Assembly (NCBI GenBank): GCA_905339165.1
Contig: CAJPFH010000012.1
Span: forward strand, 62,001-126,000
Direction: 5' to 3'
Length of the DNA stretch: 64,000 nt
Origin: Flavobacteriales bacterium
GTDB lineage: Bacteria > Bacteroidota > Bacteroidia > Flavobacteriales_E > Vicingaceae
The position numbers and the translations under genes are program-made. Numbering within the stretch: position 1 is the first letter of the stretch; every line of letters starts with the position of its first letter. Shown piece by piece: positions 8,069-11,543 of the stretch. The notes beneath the pieces were generated by a model. That model was not told the DNA's origin and made no database searches. It saw only the letters and a program-made list of their open reading frames with translations.

Positions 8069-9361
8069 ATGAAACGAGATAAACATAGCAAGAGGAGTAT
8101 TTATGTAGTCATGTTTATGATTATTTTATCCTCAAACTGCTTATACTCCCAATCTCGCCTTGTACTAAACAACGACCCATGGATTGTAATGAACAACAAT
8201 GCCTACATTGTGCTTGGAAACAGCAATGCAAATGCAATAACTTTGGCAGGCTCCGGAGGAAGAATTGTTTCGGAAGCCGAAAACAACAAAATAAGATGGA
8301 ACATAGGAACTTCTACCGGAACCTATACGCTACCCTTTGCCGATAACCTGGCGGAAGGCGGAACAAAAATTCCTTTAAGCCTTACCATAGGCACTTCGGG
8401 TACAGGTGCTGGATACATAGATTTTTCTACCTATGACGGAGCCACATGGAACAATGCCTTGTATATGCCCAGTATGGTTACTCACATGGGGCAATACTTA
8501 TCTCCCAACGCACCCAACAACTCTCAGAAAGCTATTGACCGCTTTTGGCTTTTAAATGCACAAGGGTACGTTACCAAACCTGCCCCAGGTTCTATGGTTT
8601 TTACATACATAGATAATGAACATACTGCCGGAGGAAACAGCATTACTGAATCTGTTTTAGGTGCTCAACGCTTTAATAATGGCACCAATCAGTGGGGCGA
8701 TATGCTGCCCATTGGTCTTGTAAACACTTTTTCCAACACGGTTACAACTCCGGCCATTTCTGCCGCCAACTTTTTTGCTGCATGGACTCTTTCCGATTCG
8801 AACGACCCACTTCCTATTTCCTTGCTATCTTTCAATGCAAATTGTGAAAACAGCAATATTGTGTTGAAGTGGACTACTGCTTCGGAACAAAATAACCATT
8901 ATTTTACGGTGATGAAATCTTTTGATGGTTATACTTTTGCTCCCATTGGAACGGTGCTTGGAAATGGAAATTCCAACACAATTAGAAATTATTTATTTGT
9001 AGATAAGGCCTATCAGGAAAAAGCATATTACCGGCTCTCTCAAACCGATTTTGACGGAAAAACAACATCGTATGATTTAGTGTTGGTCTCTTGCGAAGAA
9101 TACCTGCCACTCGATATTATTTCGGTTAATTATAATTCTAATCAGCAGGTTTTTGCCTATCTGCAAATTCCGACTAACGGCAATTACACCATTAATATGT
9201 ACGATTTAAAAGGCTCTCTTCTTTTCGAGAAAACACTTTATTTACAAAAGGGTGTGCTTCCTCTGCCATTAGATATTTCTAAAATTTCAGACGGAGTATA
9301 TTTTTTTAGTGTACAAAACGACTTCCAAAAGCTTTCAAAAAAGTTTTTTCTAAACAGATAA
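8069..9361 (+). CDS. Secreted protein with T9SS C-terminal sorting domain
   Basis: A 430-residue protein with an N-terminal signal peptide after a basic stretch (about residues 1-28). The body is rich in Asn, Gly and Thr and shows no recognised catalytic motif. From about residue 255 it has the segment LPISLLSFNANCENSNIVLKW, then FTVMKSFDG and AYYRLSQTDFDGKT, the immunoglobulin-like module commonly found just before T9SS tails. The last 80 residues form the type A sorting domain with NYTINMYDLKGSLL and ISDGVYFFSVQND. It follows the 6889 gene by 25 nt and probably shares its transcript. Its stop codon directly abuts the stop codon of the convergent gene at 9362. Confidence 0.8.
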   Translation: MKRDKHSKRSIYVVMFMIILSSNCLYSQSRLVLNNDPWIVMNNNAYIVLGNSNANAITLAGSGGRIVSEAENNKIRWNIGTSTGTYTLPFADNLAEGGTKIPLSLTIGTSGTGAGYIDFSTYDGATWNNALYMPSMVTHMGQYLSPNAPNNSQKAIDRFWLLNAQGYVTKPAPGSMVFTYIDNEHTAGGNSITESVLGAQRFNNGTNQWGDMLPIGLVNTFSNTVTTPAISAANFFAAWTLSDSNDPLPISLLSFNANCENSNIVLKWTTASEQNNHYFTVMKSFDGYTFAPIGTVLGNGNSNTIRNYLFVDKAYQEKAYYRLSQTDFDGKTTSYDLVLVSCEEYLPLDIISVNYNSNQQVFAYLQIPTNGNYTINMYDLKGSLLFEKTLYLQKGVLPLPLDISKISDGVYFFSVQNDFQKLSKKFFLNR

Positions 9362-9913
9362 CTATTTTCTGATTATTTTTTGAGTGTAGCTAAACCCTTC
9401 TTCATCGCAGGAAAAAAGGCTCACAAAAAACATTCCGGCAGGTATTTTTTCTTCTGAAACACGGTATACATTTAATCCTTTTGCTGCCTGTACCTTTTCT
9501 GTATATACAGCCTTTCCTAACAAATCGGTTAACTTAATTTCCAATGTCGTTTCTGCATCGGAATAAACATCAATGTTTATCTGTCCTGATGTTGGATTCG
9601 GATAAATATTCTTAACACTCAGTTTCTTGTTATTCCCCATTTGGATTGAAATAATTTCAGAATACTCCACTTTACCATTTAAATCAACCTGTTTCAGGCG
9701 ATAGTAATTAATACCTTCCGCAGGAGCTTCGTCATTAAACACGTAGGTAAAATGAATATTTTTACTGTTCATTGCTTTCATTCTGCCAAGCGAAACAAAG
9801 TTTTCTGCATCGGTCGAACGCTGAATTTCAAAATAATTAAATTCCTTTTCGCTAACTGTTACCCACTCCAACATATTTTTACTTCCCATATTTACTCCTA
9901 TAAAACTGAGCAT
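9362..9913 (-). CDS. T9SS sorting-domain segment separated by a frameshift from the 9936-11543 gene
   Basis: This 183-codon frame is not an independent gene. It starts in the middle of the usual pre-tail module (FIGVNMGSKNMLEWVTVSEKEF, FEIQRSTDAENF, NYYRLKQVDLNGKVEYSE) and ends with a complete type A T9SS tail (VKNIYPNPTSGQINIDVYSD, then IPAGMFFVSLF). Removing one G from the nine-G run at 9946-9954 joins it without any stop to the upstream frame, giving SGGATLSCVPLSVEMLSF across the junction and a single protein of about 726 residues. As sequenced, this part has no signal peptide and no obvious start. Either the tract is phase variable or this is an indel error in the assembly. Confidence 0.75.
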   Translation of the reverse strand: MLSFIGVNMGSKNMLEWVTVSEKEFNYFEIQRSTDAENFVSLGRMKAMNSKNIHFTYVFNDEAPAEGINYYRLKQVDLNGKVEYSEIISIQMGNNKKLSVKNIYPNPTSGQINIDVYSDAETTLEIKLTDLLGKAVYTEKVQAAKGLNVYRVSEEKIPAGMFFVSLFSCDEEGFSYTQKIIRK

Positions 9914-9935
9914 TTCAACGGACAGAGGTACACAA

Positions 9936-11543
9936 CTAAGGGTAGCCCCCCCCCGAAAGAGACCATGTTAAATTAAATGGGGTGGTATTGGCTGTAAAAT
10001 TATCAATCAGTAAAATATAAACCTGTCCGGCCGTTGCTTGTATGCCGGGAACCCATCCATTTAACGTATTACCTATGCCATCGGTGTATGCCGGAACAGG
10101 AGGGGCAAATTGCGGCACAGAATGTACAGAATGCCCAATACCTGTATCGTAAGAGCCTGTTTGGCCAAAAGTAGCACCACCGGAGGCAAAAGAACAACGA
10201 ATGGGAGGAACTGCGGGCGGACAAATGGTTCCTGAATTAGACCCGGGAGGATATGGCCCCCAAATGGCAAAATCATAATCAATTCCGGAATTGGGGGCAA
10301 TGGTTAAACCCAAATTACCAGTGGTTGCAGGGGAAAATAAATACCAAGAAGATTGGTGTTCTAGAGATAAGCAACCTTGGTTGCCTGCGTTGAGCTCTTG
10401 TGTGCAGCCATATCCGGAGGCATTGCCCGTAAAAGGAGAACTATTGCACACCGTAGTTCCCTGAGTACAATCTGTATTTGTAACACACGAGCCTGCAGGT
10501 GCTGATATCGTTAAGTTAGAATATGGATTACAATTGGGTGCAGGCCACGAATCTAAGATAAGATAATAGGTATGATTTGCTTTGGCACAAAACGAGATGG
10601 TTTTATCTCCGGAACTACCCGTTGCATTTCCGACACAACAAACAGCTGTTCCACCGGGTGTACAAACTCCTAATAAGGGACAACCATCATACAGCATTAA
10701 ACCAGTATAGGTGCCTGAAGATGTTAGATTAATGGTAACGGTTCCCGAAGTAAGCGGAGTAAAAATCCATACCCTGTCTTCGCCACCAAGGTATAATGAA
10801 CTTCCGCATACCGTAGTATTACTAGTTGTTAAATCATTTACCGCTCCGCAAGTAGTGCCTGCACCGGAGGCATATGGCAGAGCAACTACATTGGTAACTC
10901 CTGTGCCTAAATTACAAGGAGGAGCAACTGAAGAAGATTGTAGAGATATATTGTCAATGGCTCCCGGAAATTGTGTTCCAACCGATCCGTCATTTATCCA
11001 CGAAAAAACCAAACGAATTGTAGTTCCGGGGGTTGCACAAAAAGTTTGACTTACCAAAGTCCAATTACTTCCAACCAAGTTATAATCTCCTCCTATTTGT
11101 CCGCTTCCCACTTGAGTACCTGCAACGGGTGTTACTCCGGTAGAAACATTATACACCCTTATGTAATCATACGAAGATTCTCCCTGCCCCTTGTAGTAAA
11201 AAGAAAAAGATAAATAAGGTTCTCCGGCAGGAATGGTTATATCTCTATAAAAATGAACTACTGATGTATTGCCTATGTTGTAGTTATAGGTGTTTCCTGT
11301 TGCATGGTCGGATACATAAGCACAATTAGTTCCTGCAAATGGGGTTGCCGGATTTCCGGGTGTTTTGCTCCACCACTTATTAGTTTGTGCTCCGTTTACC
11401 TCTGTCCAACCATTTGCAGCAAAAGAAGTGCCTGCTTCAAACCCACCTTGTGTAGCAGGATTAATGAGTACCGTAGCAAAAACATGATTTATTGTTACTG
11501 AAATAAAAAGAAAGTATATAAAAACCTTTCTCATGTTGTGCAT
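9936..11543 (-). CDS. Secreted CUB/MAM-like protein, T9SS tail out of frame
   Basis: Counted from the ATG at 11541-11543, which overlaps the stop of the upstream gene as TAATG; the ATG at 11532-11534 (MRKVFIYFLF) is an equally good signal-peptide start. The product of about 535 residues has a signal peptide, then a jelly-roll-like region with YLSFSFYYKGQGESSYDYIR and IRLVFSWINDGSVGTQFPGA. Two disulfide-rich pre-peptidase/CUB-like modules follow, with phrases such as GSSLYLGGEDRVWIFTP and HTYYLILDSWPAPNC. The frame stops at TWSLSGGGYP immediately after a run of nine G. In the neighbouring frame the T9SS sorting domain continues (9362-9913). In the state shown the protein should reach the periplasm but lack its outer-membrane secretion signal. 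Confidence 0.8.
   Translation of the reverse strand: MHNMRKVFIYFLFISVTINHVFATVLINPATQGGFEAGTSFAANGWTEVNGAQTNKWWSKTPGNPATPFAGTNCAYVSDHATGNTYNYNIGNTSVVHFYRDITIPAGEPYLSFSFYYKGQGESSYDYIRVYNVSTGVTPVAGTQVGSGQIGGDYNLVGSNWTLVSQTFCATPGTTIRLVFSWINDGSVGTQFPGAIDNISLQSSSVAPPCNLGTGVTNVVALPYASGAGTTCGAVNDLTTSNTTVCGSSLYLGGEDRVWIFTPLTSGTVTINLTSSGTYTGLMLYDGCPLLGVCTPGGTAVCCVGNATGSSGDKTISFCAKANHTYYLILDSWPAPNCNPYSNLTISAPAGSCVTNTDCTQGTTVCNSSPFTGNASGYGCTQELNAGNQGCLSLEHQSSWYLFSPATTGNLGLTIAPNSGIDYDFAIWGPYPPGSNSGTICPPAVPPIRCSFASGGATFGQTGSYDTGIGHSVHSVPQFAPPVPAYTDGIGNTLNGWVPGIQATAGQVYILLIDNFTANTTPFNLTWSLSGGGYP
9946..9954 (-). repeat. Homopolymer G9 tract (C9 on plus strand) at the frameshift
   Basis: Nine C on the plus strand, nine G in the coding strand, placed between the last body domain and the T9SS sorting module of the secreted protein at 9362-11543. 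Eight G (or five, or eleven) gives one continuous frame; nine G gives a stop six codons later. Confidence 0.9.

What the first reader, a model, noticed from the sequence alone, without database searches (positions are those of the whole stretch)
9362..11543. Nine-G tract places a T9SS sorting domain out of frame: possible phase-variable secretion
The body of a secreted CUB-like protein (9936-11543) and a complete T9SS C-terminal sorting domain (9362-9913) are in different frames, joined by a run of nine G (9946-9954). Deleting one G gives a perfect continuous reading frame across the junction. If the tract varies between cells, it would not switch the protein off but change its destination: with the tail it is exported through the outer membrane, without it the protein stays in the periplasm. 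Switching of an export signal by slippage at the body-tail junction is not something I know as a described mechanism.
Basis: partly seen in the sequence, partly recalled or inferred. Interest (0 to 1): 0.75.

Follow-up and report, generated by a model that had tools for sequence, protein, structure and literature searches.

The report
Slipped G-run detaches an export tail
In this environmental Flavobacteriales genome a run of nine Gs has cut a secreted protein off from its export tail, but relatives have neither the run nor the break, so it looks like a recent slippage mutation rather than an evolved export switch; the genus does carry clear candidate on/off runs elsewhere, in signal peptides.

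Summary
On the minus strand a G9 run (9946-9954) puts a secreted body (ATG 11543 or 11534, stop 9936) and an intact T9SS type A sorting domain (9362-9913) in different frames; with one G fewer they form one 726-residue frame. The proposed evolved destination switch is not supported. The same-genus ortholog (94% identical body) has no run at the junction, with body and tail in one frame, though it carries a nonsense codon elsewhere. About 36 more distant homologous junctions are also in frame and run-free. A run of nine or more is not improbable (about 0.2 expected per 64 kb). About 19 other mid-gene runs of 8 or more in this genome keep frame, so a general homopolymer assembly problem is unlikely, though a local error is possible. 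At least five other tails here are detached by lesions away from long G runs. Most likely this is a private, recent +1 slippage in a dispensable T9SS cargo gene; it may revert, but population variation was not testable. Unexpectedly, the genus carries two multicopy families of secreted proteins with C(8-15) tracts in the signal peptide, with in-frame and out-of-frame copies: better phase-variation candidates.

The parts
9936..11543 (-). Body of the secreted protein: signal peptide, choice-of-anchor-J-like beta-sandwich half, second half with the DYDFAIWGP motif; ends at TAG 9936-9938 in the present frame. The start shared with the sister species is ATG 11534.
9946..9954 (-). G9 run (C9 on +) at the body-tail junction; 8 G would keep the frame
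9362..9913 (-). Tail in the other frame: junction linker and T9SS type A sorting domain, intact, no other lesion
9410..9607 (-). Por_Secre_tail (PF18962) match within the tail (residues 103-168 of the 183-aa frame)

Best explanation
This is an ordinary T9SS cargo gene carrying a recent +1 frameshift caused by slipped-strand mispairing in a G run that grew, largely by synonymous changes, over Gly-Gly codons at the body-tail junction. Cells with G9 should make a Sec-exported body without the sorting domain, expected to be retained or degraded in the periplasm; the tail is not made as part of a protein. Because the run is slippery, G8 cells with the full protein probably arise at low frequency, so it may behave as an accidental contingency locus, but there is no sign that it was selected as a switch. 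Shown: the frame break, intact halves, the run-free orthologous junction, purifying selection on both halves between the two species, frame-intact runs elsewhere. Inferred: slippage as the cause, recency, fate of the truncated protein.
For: Frame restored by one G fewer and by no other length from 7 to 10. Same-genus ortholog has TCGGGAGGTGTTACT at the junction and one frame across it; about 36 homologous junctions in frame without a run. dN/dS 0.056 (body) and 0.126 (tail) with no further lesion, so the break is young. Sister copy independently interrupted by TGA at a conserved Gly, so the gene is dispensable. Mirror case in the sister genome: a T9SS type B cargo out of frame at a private G9, intact and without a run of eight or more here. 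At least five other tails detached by lesions not at long G runs. Run length within chance expectation.
Against: Absence of any further lesion in the tail is also what a reversible switch would leave. The genus has clear candidate phase-variable runs in signal peptides, which raises the prior for the rival. No reads or conspecific strains were available.
Confidence: 0.6

Rival explanations
1. A genuine phase-variable T9SS export switch: G8 cells export the protein, G9 cells keep a tail-less form in the periplasm, and the mixture is selected.
For: G9 is long enough to slip (tcfA G9/G8 within cultures, PMC1891110); both halves are intact; the genus has many G/C runs and two signal-peptide tract families with in- and out-of-frame copies.
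Against: Run absent in the same-genus ortholog and in about 36 homologs; no other run of >=8 in this genome lies at a body-tail junction; ortholog inactivated in another way; run expected by chance.
Confidence: 0.17
2. Sequencing or assembly error: the true run is G8 and the gene is intact.
For: The rest of the frame is perfect and conserved; homopolymers are the commonest indel errors; draft assembly of 136 contigs.
Against: About 19 other mid-gene runs >=8, five of them >=9, keep frame in the same assembly; real broken tails exist elsewhere.
Confidence: 0.17
3. Rescue without DNA change: RNA polymerase or ribosome slippage on the G9 run gives a fraction of full-length exported protein.
For: Long homopolymers are slippery for polymerases and ribosomes; such rescue is described for poly(A) tracts in Buchnera (PMC2831843).
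Against: No conservation of a slippery sequence in any homolog; the documented cases that I found are mainly A/T runs.
Confidence: 0.06

Closest known systems
Bordetella pertussis tcfA/bapC autotransporter homopolymer tracts (PMC1891110)
   Same: C/G tract of about 9 inside the gene of an exported protein whose export domain lies C-terminal to it; one base more or less removes that domain from the product
   Different: There within-culture length mixtures were measured; type V, not type IX; tract early in the gene, not at the body-tail junction. Here variation is not shown and the run is not conserved in the sister species.
Campylobacter capC/capD autotransporter genes: lineage-associated decay and poly-G tracts (PMC7168839)
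   Same: Exported-protein genes repeatedly inactivated by stops and frameshifts, with G runs in or near some of them
   Different: capD tract position is conserved across the genus; here it is private to one species.
T9SS CTD truncation in Porphyromonas gingivalis gingipains (PMC4804311)
   Same: Predicts periplasmic accumulation of T9SS cargo whose CTD is damaged
   Different: Engineered truncations, not natural slippage.

Membership tests
T9SS type A cargo protein | C-terminal Por_Secre_tail / TIGR04183 domain | tested here: met
   42.8 and 40.6 bits, both over cut-off, but in another frame than the body
T9SS type A cargo protein | N-terminal signal peptide on the same protein | tested here: inconclusive
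   MRKVFIYFLFISVTINHVFA looks like a signal peptide by eye; on the body only, no predictor run
T9SS type A cargo protein | Genome encodes a T9SS | tested here: met
   SprA_N, 6.9e-169; 127 PF18962 tails
Slipped-strand phase-variable (contingency) gene | Simple-sequence tract whose length sets the frame | tested here: met
   8 G in frame, 7, 9 and 10 G out
Slipped-strand phase-variable (contingency) gene | Tract conserved in position among relatives | tested here: not met
   No run in the same-genus ortholog or in about 36 homologs
Slipped-strand phase-variable (contingency) gene | Length variation within a population | not testable with these tools
   No reads and no conspecific genomes
Pseudogene (long-standing) | Accumulated additional lesions and relaxed selection | tested here: not met
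   Both halves otherwise open; dN/dS 0.056 and 0.126. If a pseudogene, a very young one.

The most novel reading that the evidence does not exclude
Slippage at a G run placed exactly at the body-tail junction toggles a T9SS cargo between export and periplasmic retention in this species, a natural case of phase-variable type IX sorting.
Probability: 0.12. Interest if true: 0.6.

Novelty: new member of a known kind. Interest (0 to 1): 0.3.

Why it matters
If it really varied, it would show that the destination of T9SS cargo, not only its presence, can be phase-variable; I found no open-access paper linking T9SS cargo to homopolymer phase variation. As it stands it is one example of how chance homopolymers break secreted-protein genes, in a genus that has more convincing candidate on/off runs in the signal peptides of other secreted proteins, which could be tested directly.

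Tried and rejected
Junction-pattern scans of 395 genomes of the class and of genome contigs found only this locus or nothing, but the run-free control pattern also matched only this locus in 119 genomes, so the pattern is too narrow and the scans say nothing about how common such runs are; the conservation argument rests instead. A CUB identity for the body was rejected (no Pfam hit). C38:45855 (G10, 826 bases before a tail) looked like a second case, but its G10 is in frame and the gene is broken elsewhere. First-look 'intergenic' runs proved to be N-terminal coding. I first took L. monocytogenes inlA as a precedent for loss of surface anchoring; its tract lies at the 5' end and gives an 8-residue peptide (PMC2831843), so it is not one.

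Full report
Observation. On the minus strand, ATG 11543 (or 11534, the start shared with the sister species) opens a frame that reads a probable signal peptide and about 500 residues, enters a G9 run at 9946-9954 and stops at 9936. The tail, 9362-9913, is open in another frame. In silico translation with 7 to 10 G shows that only 8 G gives one 726-residue frame. The tail holds a T9SS type A sorting domain over both curated cut-offs. The genome has a T9SS (SprA) and 127 such tails. The body is not a CUB domain by Pfam; its N-terminal half is weakly choice-of-anchor-J and its predicted fold (mean pLDDT 69) resembles CBM/MAM-type beta-sandwiches.

How unusual is the run? A first-order Markov model of the window expects 0.23 runs of nine or more per 64 kb and about 11 per genome; 18 are present, roughly 11 of them in two multicopy families described below. 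The run itself therefore needs no selection.

Relatives. Its junction is TCG GGA GGT GTT ACT: no run, body and tail in one frame. It has a TGA in place of the Gly of the DYDFA(I/V/L)WGP motif that is kept in all homologs inspected, so that copy is interrupted at an unrelated place. About 36 more distant junctions in Flavobacteriales and related MAGs run straight into the tail, typically as LTWxLTNGASLDCxxLPxEL, with no G/C run of 5 or more at the junction. The G run therefore arose in this lineage, mainly by synonymous changes to GGG over Gly-Gly, and then gained one G (inference). dN/dS between the two species is 0.056 for the body and 0.126 for the tail, and neither half has other lesions here: the break is young, or it reverts, or it is an error.

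Is it an error? Of the runs of eight or more in this assembly, about 19 lie inside genes and keep the frame across the run, among them runs of 9, 9, 10, 10 and 12. A general homopolymer problem is therefore unlikely, but a single error cannot be excluded without reads.

Is it a switch? Against: no conservation; none of the other 38 runs lies at a body-tail junction, the closest downstream tails being 815 and 826 bases away; at least five other tails in this genome are detached by nonsense or frameshift lesions not at long G runs (C8:17769, C38:46690, C74:1929, C3:1089, C59:26797; judged by eye on three-frame translations). A mirror case exists in the sister genome: an RCC1-repeat protein with a T9SS type B tail is out of frame at a private G9, while its ortholog here is intact (601 residues) with no run of eight or more. 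This looks like chance runs slipping in dispensable cargo genes. For: the two genomes of the genus carry more runs of nine or more than nearly all other members of the family sampled, and two multicopy families have C tracts in the signal-peptide n-region. Family A reads MMQVQK..P(n)-NYLKISLLC..MSIF..AISQNLPNTLPDTGFVGVGT; 7 of 7 copies here are out of frame (n = 8 to 15), against 4 in and 3 out in the sister genome. Family B reads MKHLPPP-IFGTLKTLVFAVF..AQN; one copy here is in frame (a 1382-residue PKD and T9SS protein with C9) and five are out, against two in and one out in the sister genome. Slippage at G/C runs is thus plausible in this genus, and reversion at the window's G9 is plausible too.

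Function. A precedent for reversible loss of a C-terminal export domain through a G9/G8 run is the autotransporter gene tcfA of B. pertussis (PMC1891110). I found no paper in the open-access library linking T9SS cargo and homopolymer phase variation; most subscription papers are not covered.

Verdict. Observation confirmed; a private, recent slippage frameshift is the best explanation (0.6); a selected destination switch is possible but unsupported (0.17), as is a local assembly error (0.17).

Noticed in passing
L009, L012, L016, L019, L020, L024, L045 (this genome); L209, L213, L220, L222, L223, L224, L227 (sister genome): Family A: multicopy secreted proteins with a C(8-15) tract between the start codon and the hydrophobic core of the signal peptide; in-frame and out-of-frame copies, tract length varies between copies. 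Looks like a signal-peptide phase-variation family; no Pfam or NCBIfam match for the protein.
   Followed up: partly
L015, L018, L023, L037, L043, L046 (this genome); L211, L212, L219 (sister genome): Family B: PKD/T9SS surface proteins starting MKHL-PPP-IFGTLKTLVFAVF with a C(8-12) tract in the signal peptide; C9 copies are in frame, C8 and C10 copies out.
   Followed up: partly
L214:2528 (sister genome C9:36927); ortholog L234 in this genome: RCC1-repeat T9SS type B protein out of frame at a private G9 in the sister genome, intact (601 aa) and without a long run here.
   Followed up: yes
L138 (this genome, C8:17769) and L017 (C38:46690): T9SS tails detached from their bodies by an in-frame stop just before the tail (C8) and by a frameshift at GGGG plus a stop (C38).
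   Followed up: partly
L135 (this genome, C74:11126): Very small protein consisting of little more than a signal peptide and a T9SS tail (open frame of 124 aa).
   Followed up: no
window 8069-9361 (+) against 9362-9913 (-): A convergent gene with its own T9SS tail ends on the base next to the end of the detached tail's gene; no terminator-like site was found between 9200 and 12100.
   Followed up: no
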